Positions 26,161 through 36,967 of a stretch of DNA of 64,000 nt are shown one piece after another. Origin of the DNA: Flavobacterium sp. (lineage in GTDB: Bacteria; Bacteroidota; Bacteroidia; Flavobacteriales; Flavobacteriaceae). Numbering within the stretch: the first letter of the stretch is position 1; each line of letters starts with the position of its first letter. The stretch covers positions 186,001-250,000 of the forward strand of contig NZ_JAQSDH010000022.1 in NCBI RefSeq assembly GCF_029945805.1, written 5' to 3'. Below the pieces are notes generated by a model, which saw only the letters and a program-made list of their open reading frames with translations, was not told the DNA's origin and searched no databases. The position numbers and the translations under genes were made by a program.

Positions 26161-28371
26161 TTATATCTTTTTTTCTGCAAAATACATATCTATTTCTCCT
26201 TTGTTCTTGGCGCTTATTTTTCCTCTGTAGGTACATTGGAAGTCCTCTTTTACTAATTCTTGGGTACTTTGACTGATATTTACTTTTCCTGCTTCACCGC
26301 TACTTTCCATTCTAGAGGCAGTATTTACGGTATCACCCCAAATGTCATACGCGAATTTTTTTACACCTACAATTCCGGCCACAACTTGACCACTGTTTAT
26401 TCCTATTCGAATTTCAAATACATTTTCGTTCTTTTTCCTTTCGTTGATGAAATCCCTAATTTCTATTGCTGCCTGGACTGTCTTTTTTGCATGATCCTCT
26501 GAAAAATCAGGCAAACCGCATACTGCCATATAGGAATCTCCTATGGTCTTGATTTTCTCTAAACCATTTCGTCCAATGATTTCATCGAAAGCAGAAAAAC
26601 AAGCATGAAGTTCATCTACTAATTGCTCTGGTTTGAGTTTTTCTGAAGTATGCGTAAAGTCGACAAAGTCAGTAAACAAGACTGAAACTTCATTATAAAA
26701 ACGTGCCTTAATTTTTCCACTTGTTTTTAATTCTTCTGCGATTTCAATTGGAAGAATATTTAAAAGAAGGTCTTCTGAACGTTGTTTTTCAATAAGAATT
26801 ATGCGATTGGCTTCCGTTATTAATTTATATGATTTCTTTTGATTTCGATAATTTCTATAAACAAGAAAGGCCATTATCAGCATCAATACTGCAAAAACAG
26901 TAGTAGCATTGCGTATGTTCTTTTGCCGTTTAATTTCTATTTGGGCTAAAACATTTTTCTTTTCTTGTTTTGCTTGGGCCAATGCCTTTTCAGTTTGAAC
27001 CGCATTAATCAATGTTTTATAATTGCTCTCAATCCGCTGACGTTTGGCTTCTTCTTCTTGTTTTAATTGAAGTCGCTCTTCATCAGTCTTAGCCTGCGCT
27101 TGTTTTTTTTCATACTCAAATTTTAACTGCTGCAAATCCATTTCTTTACTTAAACTTAGCTCCTTATTTCGGCTTTCTAGTTTAATAGAATCTTGTTTAC
27201 GACTGTATTCTGATTTTAAATTCGCTTGTGCCTGACTGTATTCTTTTGATCGGTCTTCGCGTATATAAACGGTGTCTTTTTTAGTGCGTTTTACGCTACT
27301 TTCTTTTGTAGAAATATCTCCTGCTGATAAACTTTTAGCAAAAGATAAGGATTTGGAAAATTGCTGGCTAACATCATTACTGCCGATAGCTGTAAGTTGT
27401 TTAATGGCACTGTCAAGTTTATCCATTGCTTGTTGAAGTAATTGCTGACGGTCCGCGGTGTTTTTAGCATCTTGCGCCATCTCTAAATACGTAATCCCAA
27501 TATTACCTATATTCCTTGAAGCACCTTCTTTATTTCCAATTTGTTCGAAGGCCTTTTGTGATTTCGAATAATACTCAAGTGCATTCGTATAATTATTCAG
27601 CGAAAAATAGAGCGAACCAATACTATTGGCATTTAGCGCCTCACCTTTTACATTATCCAGCGACTCATGGATTTTAAGAGATTTTAGATAATAATCTAAT
27701 GCTTTAGGATTGTTCTGGCTTCTGTAGATGTTGCCAATGTTTGTAGAAGTACTAGCAACTTCTTTTTGGTTTCCAACTGCTTCATTTAAATCGGATGATT
27801 TTACGAAGTATTCAAGTGCTTTTGGAGTATTGGACATATCATTATAAACATTTCCAATGTTACTGTACAATACTGGAAGACTTTTCTTGTTACCAAGTTC
27901 TTCGTTTAATTTAGCTGCCCGCAAGTAATAATCTAATGCATTAGAATTATCCTTTTTACTGTAATACAAAGAGCCGATATTTGCTGTTAAAGAAGCCATG
28001 TTCTTTTTATTCCCGGCGTCTTCGTTAATTTTAAGTGCTTTCAAATAGTATTCGATGGCGCTATCATAATTTTTTATCCTTTGGTAATTCATCCCCAACA
28101 AATTATAAGAACGAGACAAAACATCTTTCCATCCATTTTTCTGGGCTAAGCTCAAGGCGCTTTCACCATATTGAATTGCTTTTTTGGAATCGATTGGACC
28201 GTAGGTGTTTGAAAGGTCGTTGAGGAGCATGGCTTTTTGCTTCTCTGACTTTGCTCTTGGAAGTTCCGTTAGAAGAGAATCTATAAGTGATTGTCCTTGT
28301 TTCTGGGCATAAATTTGCACTACGGAAAAGAGAATCAAAGTGCTAACTACAACTTTATAATTTTTCACCAT
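26161..28371 (-). CDS. TPR-containing adenylate cyclase (class III)
   Basis: A 736-residue receptor-like cyclase. Order: signal peptide (to IYAQKQ), six or so TPR units at about 60-300, a Gln/Lys-rich coiled coil at 370-485, a membrane helix near 490-510 (FAVLMLIMAFLVY), then a class III cyclase domain at 555-736. The metal-binding Asp residues are in VLFTDFVDFT and IGDSYMAVCG. The adenine-selecting Lys and Asp are in LEKIKTIGD and AYDIWGDTVN, and the transition-state Asn/Arg in NTASRMES. So cAMP is the likely product. The TPRs face the periplasm and may sense a protein partner. Confidence 0.93.
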   Translation of the reverse strand: MVKNYKVVVSTLILFSVVQIYAQKQGQSLIDSLLTELPRAKSEKQKAMLLNDLSNTYGPIDSKKAIQYGESALSLAQKNGWKDVLSRSYNLLGMNYQRIKNYDSAIEYYLKALKINEDAGNKKNMASLTANIGSLYYSKKDNSNALDYYLRAAKLNEELGNKKSLPVLYSNIGNVYNDMSNTPKALEYFVKSSDLNEAVGNQKEVASTSTNIGNIYRSQNNPKALDYYLKSLKIHESLDNVKGEALNANSIGSLYFSLNNYTNALEYYSKSQKAFEQIGNKEGASRNIGNIGITYLEMAQDAKNTADRQQLLQQAMDKLDSAIKQLTAIGSNDVSQQFSKSLSFAKSLSAGDISTKESSVKRTKKDTVYIREDRSKEYSQAQANLKSEYSRKQDSIKLESRNKELSLSKEMDLQQLKFEYEKKQAQAKTDEERLQLKQEEEAKRQRIESNYKTLINAVQTEKALAQAKQEKKNVLAQIEIKRQKNIRNATTVFAVLMLIMAFLVYRNYRNQKKSYKLITEANRIILIEKQRSEDLLLNILPIEIAEELKTSGKIKARFYNEVSVLFTDFVDFTHTSEKLKPEQLVDELHACFSAFDEIIGRNGLEKIKTIGDSYMAVCGLPDFSEDHAKKTVQAAIEIRDFINERKKNENVFEIRIGINSGQVVAGIVGVKKFAYDIWGDTVNTASRMESSGEAGKVNISQSTQELVKEDFQCTYRGKISAKNKGEIDMYFAEKKI

Positions 28372-28527: not shown

Positions 28528-29523
28528 TTAATCAAGTTCGTCCGTTAGTTTTTTAAATACTGATTTCGCATCTTTTCCTTCATACAAAATTTGATAAACG
28601 GCATCAATGATAGGTGTTTTAGCTTTGTATTCTTGGTTTAATTTATAAGCGCTTTTCACCGCATAATAGCCTTCTGCAACCATGGACATCTCCATCATGG
28701 CTGATTTAACCGTATATCCTTTTCCAATCATGTTTCCGAACATTCTATTTCTTGAAAAGACCGAATAGCCTGTAACCAATAAATCGCCCAAATAAGCTGA
28801 ATTATTAATATTTCGTTTCATCTTATGCACTTTGCGGATGAACTTTTTCATTTCACGAATGGCGTTACTCATAATCACCGACTGGAAGTTATCTCCGTAA
28901 CCCAAACCGTGGGCAATTCCGGCCGCAATAGCATAAATATTTTTCAACATTGCAGCATATTCTGTTCCGATGATGTCGTCTGAGATTTTAGTTTTGATAT
29001 AATTTCCGGCTAAAACTTTGGCAACAACTTTAGCCTTATCCGAATCGCCACAGGCAATCGTAAGATAGGAAAGACGCTCTAATGCAACCTCTTCTGCATG
29101 ACATGGACCCGTAATCACACCTATATTCTCAAACGGAATATCAAACTTCCTGTTGAAATGTTCGCCCACAATTAAAGAAGTTTCGGGAACAATTCCCTTA
29201 ATTGCTGAAAAGATAACTTTGTCTTTTAAACTAACGGTCAACTTCGCTAATTCAGCACTTAAGAAAGCGGAAGGAATCGCAAAAATTAGGTAATCTGCAT
29301 ATTCCACCGCTTCATTTATATCCGATGTGAGTCGGAGTTTTTTAATATCAAATTCAACCGAACTTAAATAATTTGGATTGTGTTTTTGGGTTTTTATATG
29401 ATCAATTGCCGATTCATTTCGCATGTACCAAGCAATTTCGTCAAGATTGACACACAACATTTTTGCAATGGCTGTAGCCCAACTTCCACCGCCAATTACT
29501 GCAAACTTTGGATAGTTATTCAT
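28528..29523 (-). CDS. gpsA: glycerol-3-phosphate dehydrogenase (NAD(P)+)
   Basis: A 331-residue cytosolic enzyme that reduces dihydroxyacetone phosphate to sn-glycerol 3-phosphate for phospholipid synthesis. The nucleotide-binding motif VIGGGSWATAIAKML, the middle motif ITGPCHAEEVA and the catalytic lysine region EYAAMLKNIYAIAAGIAHGLGYGDN are present. The track begins at a TTG seven codons upstream; ATG at 29523 (MNNYPKFAVIGGG) is preferred because the Rossmann motif then sits at the usual place. Confidence 0.97.
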   Translation of the reverse strand: MNNYPKFAVIGGGSWATAIAKMLCVNLDEIAWYMRNESAIDHIKTQKHNPNYLSSVEFDIKKLRLTSDINEAVEYADYLIFAIPSAFLSAELAKLTVSLKDKVIFSAIKGIVPETSLIVGEHFNRKFDIPFENIGVITGPCHAEEVALERLSYLTIACGDSDKAKVVAKVLAGNYIKTKISDDIIGTEYAAMLKNIYAIAAGIAHGLGYGDNFQSVIMSNAIREMKKFIRKVHKMKRNINNSAYLGDLLVTGYSVFSRNRMFGNMIGKGYTVKSAMMEMSMVAEGYYAVKSAYKLNQEYKAKTPIIDAVYQILYEGKDAKSVFKKLTDELD

Positions 29524-29712
29524 AAAAATAAACTTTTGTTTCAATCAAAAATACTGATTTTTAAACGAACTAAATACCTTTTTAGAGCACAAAATCTCTT
29601 ACCCTTTATCAATCAATTTGTTGCCGAATATATTTTCATCTTGACGTAATAAAAAACCAATGTTAATTGTGGCTTAACTTTCAATTTCTTTTAATAAATT
29701 GTGAACTAAATC

Positions 29713-30973
29713 ATGCAAAACTCTACTTTTTATACTAATTTAGTAGCATACCAAAAACAACAAATAGCACGCCTTGAAACCATTTCCATTCCAATGCCAA
29801 TTACGGGATTATTTTAAAAATCAAACCAAAACCTGGGCTTGGTTTTTAGATAAAAATGTACAGAAAGAACAAATCGAAAGTTTTAAAACCGATTTACTCA
29901 AAAATGCCTATCGAATAGATCCAGTAACCGAACCGGAATGGTACGCGCTGCTGCAAAAGGCGAAGGACAAACTCAACTTATCACTATCCGTAACTTTGTA
30001 CCAATCACAGCAGGTTGATTATAATAACGGCGCAATCGTATCCTTTGAAAATGAAGCGCATTTAATACTTTCAGGCTCGATATTGAAACTTTTAAATCAT
30101 GATGAATTGTTGGCTTTATTTGGACACGAACTGAGTCATATTCATTTAAATTCGATTGAAAATGGCGATTTTGAAGTCACCAACCGAATCATAAATGCAA
30201 TTGCCAACGACTATAAAAGTGAATTGTTCTATCACGAAACAGCACGGATTTTTCAACTGTTTACCGAATTATACTGCGATTTAGGCGCATTAAAAGTAAC
30301 CGAAAACCTCGAAACTGTAATTACAACTTTGGTTAAAATTGAAACCGGATTAGAGAAAGTTTCGGCCGAGAGTTACCTGAAACAGGCGGACGAAATTCTG
30401 ACCCGAATTGAAGTTGGTTCTTCGGGAGAATCACATCCTGAAATTTATATTCGTGCCAAATCATTGCAGCTTTTATCGAATTACACTGATGAAAATGTTG
30501 CCAAAATAGAAGAAATTGTTAAAGGAAAACTCGATTTGCAGTTGCTTACACTTTTCAGCAAAAAGGAAGTTTATGGCATAACTAAAAACCTGATTGATCT
30601 TTTTACGAAGCCCAAATGGATGCAGTCGGAACATAATATCGTGTTATACAAACAGTATTTTGGACAATACAATCCGAATCGAGACTTGCTTTTGGATGCT
30701 GATTTCAAAACCAAGATTGCTAACAGCAGAGACAATCTGAAAAATTATTACGCGTACATTTTGTTCGATTTTGCTATGTGCGATACCGAACTCAAGGAAA
30801 TTGCGATTGGTCATGCTTTAGATGTTTCAGAACAATTGGAACTCGATACATTTCTGAAAATTATCATCAAAAAAGAATACAAACTCACTGAGAAAAGCTT
30901 TAAAGATTTTTGCAAAAACTGTACGGTTGCGCTAAATCAAATTCTGGAATCTGAATCTGAAAGCAGCTATTAG
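29713..30973 (+). CDS. M48-like metallopeptidase, apparently frameshifted near its start
   Basis: A zinc metallopeptidase-like protein of about 419 residues if repaired. The zinc motif is LFGHELSHIHLN (HExxH), with FTELYCDLGALK downstream as the likely third ligand. The ORF track starts at TTG 29774. However, ATG at 29713 in the neighbouring frame reads MQNSTFYTNLVAYQKQQI, continues to IPMPIT, and would join DYFKNQTKTWAWF if one G were dropped from GGG at 29805-29807. The join is smooth, so a single-base insertion is likely. The gene ends three bases before the helicase gene, so the two form one operon. Target of the peptidase unknown. Confidence 0.75.
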
Positions 30974-30976
30974 AAC

Positions 30977-33900
30977 ATGAAAATACAAGATACCAAATTT
31001 TATAAATTCCTGACTTCCCATTTTGATAAAGGCCTTTTTGCCAATGACGATGTAGTTGCCGTAATGATGCCGTTGCTTCAAACCGTTGCTAAAATTCACA
31101 ACCAAGGAAAAGTTGCAGGGTTAGAAAAACTCGAAACTATTTTTGTTGAAGATGAAAAATTAAATATTGTTTCAGACGAATTCAAAACACAAAATAACGC
31201 ATCGCAATTTGCTTCTTTTTTTTCCGATCAAAGTAAAACGTTTAACATCAGCAGTGAAGTAGTTCAAAAAGTAGCCGTTGGTGAAGACGACACGACCGAA
31301 GCATATTTTGACCAATCCGTTCAAAGTTCAGACGAACCGATTGTAAAACCAATGTATCTCAAAAATTATGATTGTTTTGAGTTTGCCTTCAACCATCATG
31401 ATCCGCTTTCCGACATTTATGTTCTGGGAATGATTATGGCGAGCCAAGCGCTAAACCTAGATTTTACAGATGTAGATGATTTAAATGAATTTGTTGCAAA
31501 CCGAAAAAGTATGGTTTTTGTTAATCCGAAAATTCATCCGGCGATTGCAAATATTATTTTGGGTATGACCCAACTCGACAGAAGAAAACGTTGGAAAGAT
31601 TTAAACGAAATCATCGAAAAACTCAAAAATTATCGCGATTACAATCCGGAAACGGAATATGATATTTCAAAAATTATTCAGCCAAAGAAAACCAGCAAAC
31701 AACAATACATTCAAGAAAAACTGCGAAATCGTTTGTTTGACAACAGCCGAAGAAACCGTTTGCTCTATTATAAACCGAATTTAAAATTTCTAAATCTTAC
31801 GATTGCTTCGGTGCCGCAAGTGCTAAATTATAAAAATATTGACCCCAATTCGTTGTTTTATTGGAATACAGAAATCTCTAAAAAAATAAGCAACAACAGT
31901 TCCATTTCACTGAATAAATACTTGCGTTTTGAGGACAATCCGTACATCGTTCCAACACTCGATAAGATTCGTTTGGAAGCCAATAAAGACGTAAATGAAT
32001 ATGGTTTTAGTCAATTAAAACTGGTTTTATGTTTTCTAAATTGGTACAACACTAAAGAAAATGCAACCGAAAAAATCGAAACGCCATTCTTGCTAACACC
32101 CATTAATCTAACCAAAAAGAAAGGCGTTAAAGATGAATTTACGTTAGATTTTGTAGATGATGAAGTTGAAATTAATCCGGTTTTGGCGAATATGCTAAAG
32201 GATTTGTACGGCATCAAATTGCCTGAAAGAATTCAGCTTTCTGAAACGAGTATTACCGATGTTTTTCAGTTATTGAAACATCAAATTGAAAGCAATAATT
32301 CGGGGATAACATTAGAAAATATTGACAAGCCCAGAATAAAATTGATTCATACACAAGCGCAAAGCACGTTACATCAATTCAAAAAAAGAAACTCGAAACG
32401 TCAGGCTGTAGCCGACATTAAGAACATTGCCTATTCGTATTCGCAAGATGATTTTCAGCCTTTTGGACTGCAATTATTCAAGCAATATATTGAAGATGAA
32501 GCTTCGGGATTGGAGTTTTTAATCGACTCTGACATCAAACTCAACCCGAAACAATTCAGCGAAAATAAGACGATTGATCGCGAATTTTATACCTTGGATG
32601 AAGGTGAAGTAAATCCGTTTATTTGGGAATTTGATACCTGTAATATGGTTATCGGAAACTTCAATTACAAGAAAATGTCGCTCGTGCGCGATTACAATAT
32701 GGTAATTGAGAACGAATTGAATAGTCAGGTTTTTGATCATTTGTTTGCCGATTTATCGCAACGGAATTTCAAAGCCGAAACCAATTCGGTCAACGCTTTT
32801 ACCAAAACATATAATGTCGTAGCATCGGATCCAACGCAGAACAAAGCAGTTTTACTTTCGGAAGCTGGCGAAAATTATATTATTCAAGGGCCGCCCGGAA
32901 CCGGAAAGTCACAAACGATTGCCAATCTTGTAGCAAATTTTGTAGCGAATGGAAAAAAGATATTATTCGTTTGCGAAAAAAGAGCCGCACTTGACGTCGT
33001 TTTCTATCGATTGAAAAATCAAGGATTAGACGAATTGTGTTGCTTGATTCACGATTCACAATCGGATAAAAAAGAGTTTGTTCTGAACTTAAAAAGTACT
33101 TATGAAAGTTTTACAAAAGCAAAAAAAATATTCGAATCTACCAAAAAAGAACGCGATACTGTTGCTCAATCTTTGGAAAGTGAACTAAATATTCTACATG
33201 AATTTCATCAGTTTATGAAATTCAAAAATCCAAAATCAGATGCTTCGATTAAAGATATTCTGGAAGTTTTGGTCTTTAATTCGGAAACTATTTCTTCCGC
33301 AGATTTGGTTGCGCTTGATCCTTTTGCAAGTTATTCCGATTGGGAAATTTACAATGAAAAAATCAATGCACTTTACCAAATCAATCTGGAAACGAACAAA
33401 AATGAGTATTTGAGCCAGCATCCTTTTCAATATTTCTCTATGGAAGCGATGCGAAAACTCAATAATGTTGCCGAAATTGTAGAAAACCTGCAATTGGCAA
33501 ATGAAAAAATTGATGATTTAACGGAAATTCTCGATACGGCTGGATTTTTAGTCAATTCTGATTCGAGTTTTAACGATGTTCAATCATTTTTAACGCGATG
33601 TCGTCAAGCGATTCCGTTTTATGAAACCAATCAGGAAACGATTTTATCAGACAAGAAAAATACTGTTATTACTTTGGATAACGAATTGGAACAGCTTGAA
33701 AAATATTCGATTGAAATTGGAAAACTAGAAAGTCAATATCCGTATTGGAGCGAAAAAATTTCTGAAATTGATGCTCAAAATGCGTTGCCAATTCTAGAAA
33801 AAAGTGAGGATAGTTTCTTGAATATCTTTAATGGAAATTACAAGAATATCAAGAATCAGATTTTAAAATTATATGATGTTTCAAAGCACAACATCAAGCC

Positions 33901-36385
33901 AAAATTGAGTTTAGTTATCAAAAACATGCTCCAACAGCATGTAGTTTTAAATGCTAAACATGAACTTGAAATCCGCATTAAAAAGAAATACAATCTGGGC
34001 GAAATTCCGTTTATCAAAATCAATTTAAAAGCGCTTCACGAAACTATTGATAACGAAATTCTTTCGTTTTTGAGTCAGCAAAATCAAGATGTTTATGATG
34101 AAATTCGAAAAATAGACTCGTTGACGGAAAGTTTAAATCAAACACTGAAAAAATATTTGGTTCATTTTGAAAACTTGTCGCTATTGCAATTGGACGATAA
34201 AATCAAAAAAATAATTGACAATCAGCATTACTTTCAATTGTATGCGAATCAGTTTGAAGAATTGACGGGATTGAATGCTTCGGTGATTTCATTATTGCGA
34301 AAAGAGCCGATTTCGTTAGACAAATTGCAAAAACTTTTAGCTGAAAAAACATTGCAAAACTACTATGCGAGTCATTTCAATCATCAGAAGTTTAATTTGG
34401 ATTTATTGCATCATACGATTCAGAAAATTGGTTTGCTAAACAAAGAACTGCTGACTTTAAACGGAAAATTCATCATTCAAAAACAGCAAAACGATTTCAA
34501 CGAACTCATCAAAAAATCAGAACTATCCGTTGCTGGAATGGGTGAAGCGGCAAAAGTCGAAAAAAAATCAATTCTGGAAGGTCGAAAAATTCTAGAAAAT
34601 GAATTCGGGAAATCGATGCGTTATAAATCAATCCGCGAGTTATCTACATCAGAATCAGGAAAAATCATCCGGGAACTGAAACCGATTTGGCTAATGAGTC
34701 CGCTGAGTGTTTCCGATACTTTACCGTTAGATGAAAATTATTTTGACGTAGTAATTTTTGACGAAGCCAGCCAGATTACTTTGGAAGAAGGCTTGCCACC
34801 AATTTACAGAGCCAAACAAACGATTATTGTGGGTGATGAAATGCAAATGCCGCCGAGTAATTTCTTTGGAAGTTCTTCTGGAAATACGGATGATTTATGG
34901 TTTGAAGCGGATTCCGAAAATGAATCATTCTCCATTGATGCTGATAGTTTCTTGACACAAGGCGCGCGCAAATTCCCTTCAATTATGTTGGGTTGGCATT
35001 ACCGAAGCAAGCATGAAGCGTTGATCGGATTTTCGAATGCCTCGTTTTATAATAATCAATTGTTGACAATTCCGGATGTGAAAGATCATCAGAATGAATC
35101 GCAGGAAATCAGTGTAGAAAACACGACTGATGCTGTTCAAAACATTCAACATCTTTATGATAAACCAATTTCGTATCACTATATCAACAAAGGAATTTAT
35201 GAAGCGCGTAGCAATGTTTTAGAAGCGCAATATATTGCTGAAATGACCAGAAGCCTTCTTTTTGAAAACAATGGCTACAGCGTCGGAATTGTGGCTTTCT
35301 CAATGGAACAACAAAACGAAATTGAAACGGCACTTCAGGATTTATGTGTGAAAGATAAAGTTTTTGAGAATTTACTCGAAGAAGAATACAAGCGAATTGA
35401 AGACAATCAGTTTGTTGGGTTATTCATCAAAAACCTTGAAAATGTTCAGGGCGACGAGCGCGATATTATCATCATGAGTACGTGTTATGGTTATGATCCA
35501 CGTGGAAAAATGCTGATGAATTTTGGCCCAATCAACAAACGCGGCGGCGAAAAACGTCTAAATGTTTTGTTTTCAAGAGCGAAGAAAAGCATGTGTGTCG
35601 TGAGTTCAATCAAATACACAGATATCAAAAATGAATACAATGACGGTGCGAATTACTTTAGAAAATACCTTCAATATGCCGAATTAGTGAGCCTCGGAAA
35701 TTTGGAAGCGGCGAATAATGTACTGAACAGTATTTCGAATAATTCGGCTGCAGCCAATGTGTCACCAACGGCTGTTGCTGTAAAATTAGAACTTGAAAAA
35801 CAAGGGTATTTCGTTACAGAAAACGTGGGTCAAAGTAGTTTCAAATGCAGTCTTGGCGTTAAAAAACATAATGATGATACCGAATTTATTCTAGGAATTA
35901 GCATTGACGATGAAACTCATTATGGCAACGATGATGTTTTGGAACAATACTTTTTGAAACCCGAATTACTGAAACACAACGGTTGGAAATTGTGCCAAAT
36001 TTATACCAAAGACTGGATTGACAATCAAAATCGCGTGATCAAAATGCTGAAAAGTGCGTTGAATAATGAAGCTTTTTTTGAACCAGTTCTCATTGAAAAA
36101 AGAGTGCCTTTTGAAGTCGAAAAACCTGTAACTGTTTTGCTGAGCGAAGAGCCGGCAGTTATTTCTAATTCGAATCAGAATGCGACCAAATTAATCAGCA
36201 CTGAAAACGGCAGCAATAAGTTTTGGGAAGTTTCGGTAACGAATGGAGAATTGATAATTCAATATGGTAAAATTGGAACCAAAGGACAAAAACTCATAAA
36301 AGCATTTGATTCTGAAGAAATTGCAACACGCGAAATGCAGACATTAATTCGCCAGAAATTAGCGCGTGGTTACAGAGAAGTGTAG
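30977..36385 (+). CDS. kinase-like / DUF4011 / SF1 helicase / nuclease-like / WGR protein
   Basis: A 1802-residue multidomain protein. Residues 30-220 resemble a kinase C-lobe (VAKIHNQGKVAGLEKLETIFV, SDIYVLGMIMA, DRRKRWKDLNEI) but lack HRD and DFG. From about 240 comes a DUF4011-type region (LRNRLFDNSRRNRLLYY). The split SF1 helicase has Walker A GPPGTGKS (638-645), Walker B DEASQ (from 1262), GDEMQMPP, VQGDERDIIIMS and LFSRAKK. Residues about 1600-1690 look like the Vsr/REase-like domain that ends such proteins, but with Ser at two expected acid positions (1625, 1642). A WGR domain ends the protein (about 1746-1802). It abuts nadD with no gap. An anti-phage or nucleic-acid surveillance role is inferred. 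Confidence 0.88.
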   Translation: MKIQDTKFYKFLTSHFDKGLFANDDVVAVMMPLLQTVAKIHNQGKVAGLEKLETIFVEDEKLNIVSDEFKTQNNASQFASFFSDQSKTFNISSEVVQKVAVGEDDTTEAYFDQSVQSSDEPIVKPMYLKNYDCFEFAFNHHDPLSDIYVLGMIMASQALNLDFTDVDDLNEFVANRKSMVFVNPKIHPAIANIILGMTQLDRRKRWKDLNEIIEKLKNYRDYNPETEYDISKIIQPKKTSKQQYIQEKLRNRLFDNSRRNRLLYYKPNLKFLNLTIASVPQVLNYKNIDPNSLFYWNTEISKKISNNSSISLNKYLRFEDNPYIVPTLDKIRLEANKDVNEYGFSQLKLVLCFLNWYNTKENATEKIETPFLLTPINLTKKKGVKDEFTLDFVDDEVEINPVLANMLKDLYGIKLPERIQLSETSITDVFQLLKHQIESNNSGITLENIDKPRIKLIHTQAQSTLHQFKKRNSKRQAVADIKNIAYSYSQDDFQPFGLQLFKQYIEDEASGLEFLIDSDIKLNPKQFSENKTIDREFYTLDEGEVNPFIWEFDTCNMVIGNFNYKKMSLVRDYNMVIENELNSQVFDHLFADLSQRNFKAETNSVNAFTKTYNVVASDPTQNKAVLLSEAGENYIIQGPPGTGKSQTIANLVANFVANGKKILFVCEKRAALDVVFYRLKNQGLDELCCLIHDSQSDKKEFVLNLKSTYESFTKAKKIFESTKKERDTVAQSLESELNILHEFHQFMKFKNPKSDASIKDILEVLVFNSETISSADLVALDPFASYSDWEIYNEKINALYQINLETNKNEYLSQHPFQYFSMEAMRKLNNVAEIVENLQLANEKIDDLTEILDTAGFLVNSDSSFNDVQSFLTRCRQAIPFYETNQETILSDKKNTVITLDNELEQLEKYSIEIGKLESQYPYWSEKISEIDAQNALPILEKSEDSFLNIFNGNYKNIKNQILKLYDVSKHNIKPKLSLVIKNMLQQHVVLNAKHELEIRIKKKYNLGEIPFIKINLKALHETIDNEILSFLSQQNQDVYDEIRKIDSLTESLNQTLKKYLVHFENLSLLQLDDKIKKIIDNQHYFQLYANQFEELTGLNASVISLLRKEPISLDKLQKLLAEKTLQNYYASHFNHQKFNLDLLHHTIQKIGLLNKELLTLNGKFIIQKQQNDFNELIKKSELSVAGMGEAAKVEKKSILEGRKILENEFGKSMRYKSIRELSTSESGKIIRELKPIWLMSPLSVSDTLPLDENYFDVVIFDEASQITLEEGLPPIYRAKQTIIVGDEMQMPPSNFFGSSSGNTDDLWFEADSENESFSIDADSFLTQGARKFPSIMLGWHYRSKHEALIGFSNASFYNNQLLTIPDVKDHQNESQEISVENTTDAVQNIQHLYDKPISYHYINKGIYEARSNVLEAQYIAEMTRSLLFENNGYSVGIVAFSMEQQNEIETALQDLCVKDKVFENLLEEEYKRIEDNQFVGLFIKNLENVQGDERDIIIMSTCYGYDPRGKMLMNFGPINKRGGEKRLNVLFSRAKKSMCVVSSIKYTDIKNEYNDGANYFRKYLQYAELVSLGNLEAANNVLNSISNNSAAANVSPTAVAVKLELEKQGYFVTENVGQSSFKCSLGVKKHNDDTEFILGISIDDETHYGNDDVLEQYFLKPELLKHNGWKLCQIYTKDWIDNQNRVIKMLKSALNNEAFFEPVLIEKRVPFEVEKPVTVLLSEEPAVISNSNQNATKLISTENGSNKFWEVSVTNGELIIQYGKIGTKGQKLIKAFDSEEIATREMQTLIRQKLARGYREV

Positions 36386-36967
36386 TTACTTTTTGTAGAA
36401 AGAACTACTGTCAATGTACTCCCAAACTTTTTGTGGTAGCATTGGCGAAACATTCTTTTTATTTTTAATGTTTTCGCGGATGAACGTTGACGACAGTTCA
36501 ATCACTGGAGCACCAACTCTGTGAATTTTTGGACTGTTGATAAACTGATTATCCATTTCACCCGAATTCAATCTTGGATAGACATAAATGTTATGGTTGG
36601 CTAAAATCACTTCGTAGTTTTTCCACTTATGAAGCGAGTTGAGATTGTCCTCACCCATGATTAAGGCAAACTCATATTTTGGATATTTCTCTTCTAAATG
36701 TGCCAAAGTTGTGACCGTATAATTCGGTTGTGGTAATTTAAATTCGATATCAGAAGGTTTAATTTTAATAAAATCTTCCGTTGCTAGATTGACCATGTGC
36801 AAACGCTGATAATCGTCTAGTAAAGTATTTTTTTGCTTAAGCGGATTGTGCGGCGTAACGACCATCCAAACTTGATCCAAATCAGAATGTTCGGCCATAT
36901 GATTGGCAATAATCATGTGCCCGATATGAATGGGATTGAAGGTTCCGAAGTATAATCCGATTTTCAT
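36386..36967 (-). CDS. nadD: nicotinate-nucleotide adenylyltransferase
   Basis: A 193-residue enzyme that adenylates nicotinate mononucleotide in NAD synthesis. The nucleotidyltransferase motifs are textbook: GTFNPIHIGHM at the N-terminus (GxFxPxHxGH) and SSTFIRENI near the C-terminus (SxTxxR). It follows gmk and yicC on the same strand, a common flavobacterial order. Its stop is directly next to the stop of the convergent helicase gene. Confidence 0.97.
   Translation of the reverse strand: MKIGLYFGTFNPIHIGHMIIANHMAEHSDLDQVWMVVTPHNPLKQKNTLLDDYQRLHMVNLATEDFIKIKPSDIEFKLPQPNYTVTTLAHLEEKYPKYEFALIMGEDNLNSLHKWKNYEVILANHNIYVYPRLNSGEMDNQFINSPKIHRVGAPVIELSSTFIRENIKNKKNVSPMLPQKVWEYIDSSSFYKK

What the first reader, a model, noticed from the sequence alone, without database searches (positions are those of the whole stretch)
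29713..36385. Two-gene cassette: M48-like peptidase plus pseudokinase-helicase-nuclease-like-WGR giant protein
Seen: the two genes are three bases apart, co-oriented, and the second stop touches the stop of nadD. The large protein carries a kinase-like C-lobe without HRD/DFG, a DUF4011-like region, an SF1 helicase with all main motifs, a Vsr/REase-like module and a WGR domain. Known: Mokosh-type anti-phage systems pair a COG1112-type helicase with a Ser/Thr kinase domain and a nuclease, and WGR domains bind nucleic acid in PARP and other proteins. Inference: this may be an unlisted defense or nucleic-acid surveillance system in which a metallopeptidase is the effector or activator.
Basis: partly seen in the sequence, partly recalled or inferred. 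Interest (0 to 1): 0.86.

Follow-up and report, generated by a model that had tools for sequence, protein, structure and literature searches.

The report
Protease-helicase pair from an ADP-ribose island
Two adjacent bacterial genes, a soluble zinc protease and a giant helicase whose built-in kinase and nuclease parts look dead, always travel together and mostly sit inside a cluster that rebuilds NAD and removes ADP-ribose, which suggests an uncharacterised virus- or toxin-conflict module whose working arm is the protease.

Summary
The pair is real and conserved. A soluble M48-like metallopeptidase (PEP, TTG start at 29774, not 29713) lies 3 bp upstream of a 1802-aa protein (HEL): kinase C-lobe-like region, DUF4011, SF1 helicase, MTES_1575 nuclease fold, WGR. 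PEP precedes HEL by 1-7 bp in every homologous locus where both could be seen (21 loci, Bacteroidota). Sequence distances track each other (r = 0.99). PEP's zinc motif and HEL's helicase motifs are invariant, but two acidic catalytic positions of the nuclease are lost in all 23 HELs and the kinase catalytic motifs are gone. PEP is therefore the likely effector.

The pair is patchy (6 of 250 species of the genus) but uses one site, between gpsA and nadD. In other Flavobacterium that site holds an island with an NrtR-type NUDIX regulator, Adps/Namat (NARP1) NAD+-rebuilding enzymes and ADP-ribose erasers; the pair is inserted just behind the regulator. The window keeps the pair without the island. 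In two non-Flavobacterium genomes it adjoins a MoxR-vWA-beta-propeller conflict system.

Best reading: a nucleic-acid-sensing ATPase controlling a protease effector, regulated with NAD/ADP-ribose stress. A SPRTN-like repair role is the main rival. It is not Mokosh, Hhe or ProA. No function was tested.

The parts
29774..30973 (+). PEP: soluble M48-like (gluzincin) metallopeptidase, 399 aa, TTG start; catalytic domain about residues 28-190 followed by an all-helical C-terminal domain
30125..30139 (+). HELSH zinc-binding and catalytic motif (residues 118-122), invariant in 22 PEPs
30266..30280 (+). E165-L-x-C-D169, putative third zinc ligand motif of M48 type, invariant in 22 PEPs except residue 167 (Y/F)
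30977..36385 (+). HEL: 1802-aa kinase-like / DUF4011 / SF1 helicase / MTES_1575 / WGR protein
30977..31696 (+). N-terminal region (residues 1-240) resembling a protein-kinase C-lobe, without N-lobe, HRD or DFG
   Evidence: (weak, E 0.04); structure model poor
31730..32197 (+). DUF4011 domain (residues 252-407)
32831..35608 (+). SF1 (COG1112/UPF1-like) helicase core: AAA_11 from residue 619, AAA_12 to residue 1544; GPPGTGKS, DEAS and the other motifs checked are invariant
35777..36061 (+). MTES_1575/Vsr-like nuclease fold (residues 1601-1695), predicted inactive: catalytic D -> S/H/N (1625), E -> S/M/L/I (1642)
36194..36379 (+). WGR domain (residues 1740-1801), Y-G-(K/R) in place of W-G-R
28528..29544 (-). 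gpsA, left core gene flanking the accessory site
36386..36967 (-). nadD, right core gene flanking the accessory site

Best explanation
The two genes are an obligate accessory module of biological conflict. HEL is an ATP-driven nucleic-acid sensor or translocase: SF1 helicase with a WGR domain for nucleic-acid ends, plus degenerate kinase-like and nuclease-like modules kept as binding or regulatory scaffolds. PEP is a soluble metallopeptidase that acts as its dedicated effector in place of HEL's dead nuclease. When HEL engages an abnormal nucleic acid (phage DNA, broken or ADP-ribosylated ends), it releases or activates PEP, which cleaves host or invader proteins. In most carriers the pair is transcribed behind an NrtR-type NUDIX regulator in an island that restores NAD+ (Adps/Namat) and strips ADP-ribose, so it is probably switched on by NAD/ADP-ribose stress. 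Shown: co-occurrence, operon spacing, motif conservation and loss, island context, patchiness. Inferred: sensing by HEL, activation of PEP by HEL, PEP's targets, and defence as the purpose.
For: PEP lies 1-7 bp upstream of HEL in all 21 homologous loci with both genes (the window adds one, 3 bp). In 396 Bacteroidota genomes, PEP full-length and the HEL N-terminus occur in exactly the same three genomes. PEP/HEL identities correlate at r = 0.991, against 0.754 for gpsA/HEL. HELSH and ELxCD invariant in 22 PEPs; helicase motifs invariant; nuclease D and E lost in 23/23 HELs, while four of five DUF4011 relatives, Hhe included, keep both and the Acinetobacter one keeps D. NrtR-type NUDIX gene 5-15 bp upstream in 17 loci. 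Island genes identified by Pfam; its NAMPT is closest to phage Namat 9W5X with all three ADPR-PP clamp residues kept. PADLOC and NCBIfam place HEL near anti-phage DUF4011 proteins. Two pairs adjoin MoxR-vWA-bpX genes. Site nearly empty in relatives; 6/250 patchiness.
Against: No phage assay; no pair found in viral contigs and PEP not found on plasmids. The window's genome lacks the island: KptA, the island NUDIX and the island PRPP-synthetase-like gene were not found. The fixed chromosomal site and lack of mobile-element genes are less typical of defence islands. That HEL controls PEP is not shown. Loss of two acidic residues does not prove the nuclease is dead. The kinase-like assignment is weak.
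Confidence: 0.42

Rival explanations
1. Repair module: PEP is a SPRTN/SprT-like protease that removes proteins or adducts covalently attached to nucleic acids, and HEL (WGR plus SF1 helicase) finds and unwinds the blocked end. The neighbouring PARG, NADAR and macrodomain enzymes remove the ADP-ribose part.
For: All 17 PEPs scanned also match SprT-like (best E 1e-5); Foldseek lists the DPC-repair protease 6mdw/6mdx among weak hits; WGR binds DNA breaks in PARPs (established knowledge); bacterial PARG and NADAR act on nucleic-acid ADP-ribosylation (PMC11833690).
Against: Patchy distribution (6/250), rapid divergence relative to core genes and a DUF4011 family background linked to anti-phage proteins fit conflict better than general repair. 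M48 scores better than SprT.
Confidence: 0.24
2. PEP is an activator, not the effector: it cleaves HEL (or a repressor, ImmA/IrrE-like) and so releases HEL's helicase or residual nuclease activity, as in nuclease-protease pairs.
For: Precedent: trypsin-like protease activates a pro-nuclease in Hachiman and AVAST (PMC12799240); HEL has many modules that could be released by cleavage.
Against: The nuclease-like module looks catalytically dead in all homologs. No pro-nuclease partner is conserved next to the non-Flavobacterium pairs.
Confidence: 0.18
3. The pair is a metabolic or proteostasis accessory of the NAD/ADP-ribose island with no role in defence, for example degrading ADP-ribosylated proteins.
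For: Insertion directly behind the NrtR-type regulator and before Adps in 5 of the 6 carriers found in the genus.
Against: The pair also stands without the island in the window, Hufsiella and MAG lineages, and HEL is a nucleic-acid enzyme related to anti-phage proteins.
Confidence: 0.12

Closest known systems
DUF4011/SF1-helicase/MTES_1575 anti-phage proteins: Hhe (NF042953), ProA (NF058533), PADLOC PDC-S37
   Same: DUF4011, SF1 helicase and MTES_1575 fold in one giant protein; profile matches of 443 bits, 644 bits and E 3e-203
   Different: Scores are far below the NCBIfam cut-offs (2000 and 1500); here the nuclease has lost two acidic positions, a WGR domain is added at the C-terminus, and a metallopeptidase is an obligate partner
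Mokosh (MkoA/MkoB/MkoC)
   Same: COG1112-type SF1 helicase; weak kinase-like N-terminus
   Different: Match confined to the helicase region; no PLD nuclease found by Pfam; kinase-like part lacks N-lobe and catalytic motifs
ARG-centred NAD+-ADPr conflict systems (PMC9503650)
   Same: NUDIX-type regulator, ADP-ribosylglycohydrolase, macro/NADAR, phosphatase, optional helicase/REase genes, in the islands of other Flavobacterium
   Different: The paper's text, searched for WGR, M48, SF1 and DUF4011, names none of them; the Flavobacterium islands also carry NARP1 enzymes and KptA; the window has the pair without the island
NARP1 (Adps + Namat)
   Same: Island carries a PRPP-synthetase-like gene and a Namat with all three clamp residues
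   Different: NARP1 itself has no protease-helicase pair; the pair is an optional insertion between regulator and Adps
Nuclease-protease pairs of Hachiman/AVAST (PMC12799240)
   Same: Protease coupled to a helicase-based defence complex
   Different: Trypsin-like protease and an active MBL-fold pro-nuclease there; zinc peptidase and a degenerate nuclease here
BepA / ZMPSTE24 / HtpX (M48) and SPRTN
   Same: Gluzincin fold; nearest structures by Foldseek
   Different: No transmembrane segment (max 19-residue Kyte-Doolittle mean 1.14 in the window PEP); own helical C-terminal domain

Membership tests
Peptidase family M48 | Pfam PF01435 above gathering score | tested here: met
   25.9 bits against 20.3; 17 of 17 members match
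Peptidase family M48 | HExxH plus downstream ExxxD | tested here: met
   HELSH 118-122 and E165-D169 invariant in 22 PEPs
Mokosh | Ser/Thr kinase domain with catalytic motifs | tested here: not met
   Only C-lobe-like similarity, no HRD/DFG
Mokosh | PLD-family nuclease, fused or adjacent | tested here: not met
   No PLD match in HEL or PEP; neighbours are core genes
Hhe | NF042953 score over 2000 | tested here: not met
   443 bits
ProA | NF058533 score over 1500 | tested here: not met
   644 bits
PADLOC candidate PDC-S37 | Profile match over most of its length | tested here: inconclusive
   E 3e-203, best stretch profile 185-1340 of 1550; PADLOC's own cut-offs not available here
MTES_1575 REase | Fold by Pfam PF18741 | tested here: met
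   48.7 bits against 38.2
MTES_1575 REase | Catalytic D and E of the ID...IECDG motif | tested here: not met
   S/H/N and S/M/L/I in 23 of 23 HELs
WGR domain proteins | Pfam PF05406 | tested here: met
   58.2 bits against 22
ARG-centred NAD+-ADPr conflict system | ADP-ribosylglycohydrolase and NUDIX-type regulator in the same neighbourhood | tested here: not met
   Absent around the window pair; present in other Flavobacterium carriers
Anti-phage defence system | Protection against phage | not testable with these tools
   Needs a plaque assay

The most novel reading that the evidence does not exclude
An effector swap inside the DUF4011 helicase defence family: the fused nuclease has decayed and a dedicated zinc protease, encoded in trans, has taken over as the effector. 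The module is wired to NAD+/ADP-ribose stress through an NrtR regulator and a chromosomal NARP1/ADP-ribose-eraser island, which would link NAD+ repair, ADP-ribose removal and a protease-based response in one locus.
Probability: 0.3. Interest if true: 0.82.

Novelty: new variant of a known kind. Interest (0 to 1): 0.62.

Why it matters
If the protease is the working arm, this would be a helicase-type defence family that changed from nuclease to protease output, testable with two point mutants. The island context also asks what chromosomal NARP1 and ADP-ribose erasers do for the bacterial host, since the pair is one of their recurrent optional partners.

Tried and rejected
Frameshift or longer PEP from the ATG at 29713: rejected, out of frame and homologs start at the TTG-equivalent. 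Mokosh membership: rejected (no PLD, no kinase motifs). Hhe and ProA equivalog status: below cut-offs. AF2 model of residues 1-248: low confidence, so not used in a fold search. C-terminal PEP hit in G022: spurious, an HNH-type protein by eye. NrtR-like operator (TGTGTA...TACACA-like) seen by eye upstream of the NUDIX gene in several loci but not upstream of the window pair: suggestive only. A recent transfer of the window pair by base composition: no signal, G+C 35.3% against 34.6% for the window. Literature searches found no description of this pair; the library lacks most subscription journals.
Full report
Observation. The two ORFs are present as described: PEP 29774-30973 and HEL 30977-36385, co-oriented, 3 bp apart, with HEL's stop touching nadD's. 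That ATG is out of frame and the reading frame it opens ends after 34 codons; the only in-frame start of PEP is TTG 29774, and homologs begin M-(I/L)KPFPF at the same point. Pfam gives M48 for PEP, and DUF4011, AAA_11/AAA_12, MTES_1575 and WGR for HEL, all above gathering cut-offs.

Conservation as a pair. A collection-wide search returned 22 loci encoding HEL. All 21 with upstream sequence carry PEP directly before HEL; the exception, L018, is cut by its contig end. Gaps are 1-7 bp. In a sample of 396 Bacteroidota genomes, the full-length PEP profile and the HEL N-terminal profile hit the same three genomes and no others; other PEP hits are short generic M48 matches. Pairwise PEP and HEL identities correlate at r = 0.991, against 0.754 for HEL and gpsA. 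No viral contig and no plasmid carried PEP.

Anatomy. In PEP, HELSH (118-122) and E165-L-x-C-D169 are invariant in 22 sequences. The AF2 model is confident (pLDDT 89). Its nearest solved structures are M48 proteases (BepA, ZMPSTE24, HtpX), with BlaR1 and the crosslink-repair protease SPRTN also listed, at weak E-values of 0.015 or worse but mostly high probability. There is no transmembrane segment by hydropathy, so PEP is probably cytosolic. In HEL, all helicase motifs checked are invariant. The kinase resemblance is weak and limited to C-lobe-like sequence with no HRD or DFG. The MTES_1575 module has S/H/N where the catalytic D stands and S/M/L/I where the catalytic E stands in 23 of 23 sequences. 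Four of five other DUF4011 proteins, including Klebsiella Hhe, keep both residues; the Acinetobacter one keeps D only. So the enzymes with intact motifs are the helicase ATPase and the peptidase. This is a prediction from sequence; it does not exclude an unusual nuclease site (D1644 and H1648 are invariant).

Locus. The pair is patchy: 6 of 250 genomes of the genus (a seventh hit at E 1e-3 is a fragmentary match). In the window it fills the interval between gpsA and nadD. In two relatives these genes lie only about 130-280 bp apart, and in others the interval holds only ADH, DJ-1 and LysR genes. In many other Flavobacterium the same interval carries an island: an NrtR-type NUDIX regulator, a PRPP-synthetase-like gene, then a variable set of microbial PARG, ADP-ribosylglycohydrolase, NADAR, macrodomain-like, KptA, DUF4291, a vWA-like gene, a PurA-like gene and a phosphatase, then a NAMPT-family gene, then nadD. 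The names vWA-like, PurA-like, phosphatase, macrodomain-like and deoxyribosyltransferase-like were read by eye; Pfam found nothing for the macrodomain-like and vWA-like proteins tested. The NAMPT gene is closest to SPbetaL1 phage Namat (PDB 9W5X, 609 bits, against 471 bits for 9KE8 and about 240 for the other NAMPT entries), and R40, F392 and Y396 of the ADPR-PP selectivity clamp are conserved in the 13 full-length copies (PMC12774641). The island is thus a likely chromosomal NARP1. KptA occurs in 58 of 250 genus genomes, so the island is much commoner than the pair. When both are present, the pair stands between the NUDIX regulator and the PRPP-synthetase-like gene, 5-15 bp behind the regulator's stop. 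Five of the six genus carriers have this arrangement; the window is the exception. In the window's nearest HEL relative (L018, 84-85% identity) the order is HEL, NUDIX, PRPP-synthetase-like, PARG, KptA. The window's own genome lacks the KptA family, the island NUDIX (positive controls found in other genomes) and the island PRPP-synthetase-like gene; only a 29% match to a 318-aa frame, probably housekeeping prs, was found.

Outside Flavobacterium the pair occurs alone in Hufsiella and in MAGs. In L015 and L025 it lies beside a MoxR-vWA-beta-propeller gene set; bpX0, bpX1, bpX2, bpMoxR and bpX4 were identified in L025, and L015 carries homologs. Such systems are predicted conflict systems (PMC7159879).

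History. The window pair is 58-63% identical to the pairs of other Flavobacterium, while gpsA is 86-97% and the other core neighbours 54-95% identical. Against L017, gpsA is 95% and HEL 58%, whereas L004 against L007 gives gpsA 87% and HEL 75%. This discordance suggests replacement or transfer at a fixed slot; gpsA alone may overstate the closeness of L017, since its other core genes are 67-90% identical to the window's.

Mechanism. I favour a conflict module: HEL senses abnormal nucleic acid by its WGR and ATPase, and PEP is the effector, with expression tied to NAD/ADP-ribose state through the NrtR-type regulator in most carriers. The steps 'HEL activates PEP' and 'PEP kills or protects' are inference. 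The nearest rival is SPRTN-like repair of protein or ADP-ribose adducts on nucleic acids, supported by SprT-like matches in all 17 PEPs scanned. A protease that activates HEL or another nuclease, as in PMC12799240, is a third option.

Known systems. HEL belongs to the broad DUF4011/SF1 helicase family that includes Hhe, ProA and the PADLOC candidate PDC-S37, but fails the Hhe and ProA cut-offs. It is not Mokosh. The island resembles the ARG-centred counter-ADP-ribosylation systems predicted in PMC9503650, which mention optional REases and helicases; a term search of that paper found no WGR, M48, SF1 or DUF4011. I found no paper describing the protease-helicase pair, within a library that lacks most subscription journals.

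Noticed in passing
L065, L066, L064, L053 and other Flavobacterium loci, between gpsA and nadD: A chromosomal island with an NrtR-type NUDIX regulator, Adps-like and Namat (NARP1) genes and many ADP-ribose-processing enzymes occupies one fixed site; the KptA family occurs in 58 of 250 genus genomes. It may be a host-owned NAD+ repair and de-ADP-ribosylation locus.
   Followed up: partly
L025:1765-8499 (-) and L015:17938-25400 (-): The pair adjoins a MoxR-vWA-beta-propeller (bpX) gene set on the opposite strand in two non-Flavobacterium genomes, on different sides of the pair.
   Followed up: partly
L091:836-7855 (+), Halomontanus rarus plasmid: An archaeal DUF4011 helicase with an intact nuclease motif is preceded by a 620-aa ADP-ribosylglycohydrolase-family gene, an independent link between DUF4011 helicases and ADP-ribose.
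   Followed up: no
upstream of the NUDIX gene in L005, L007, L011, L017, L018, L021: A palindrome-like element (TGTGTA-N-TACACA type, e.g. TGTGTATTATTTACACA in L011) near the TATATTTG promoter element; candidate NrtR operator. Not seen upstream of the window pair.
   Followed up: partly
window 26161-28371 (-): 736-aa protein that by eye carries tetratricopeptide-like repeats and a C-terminal class III adenylate/guanylate cyclase-like domain, two genes from the pair; not tested with profiles.
   Followed up: no
window 29713-29817 (+): Short out-of-frame ORF (34 codons, MQNSTFYTNLVAYQ...) overlapping the TTG start of PEP; not conserved upstream of homologs.
   Followed up: yes
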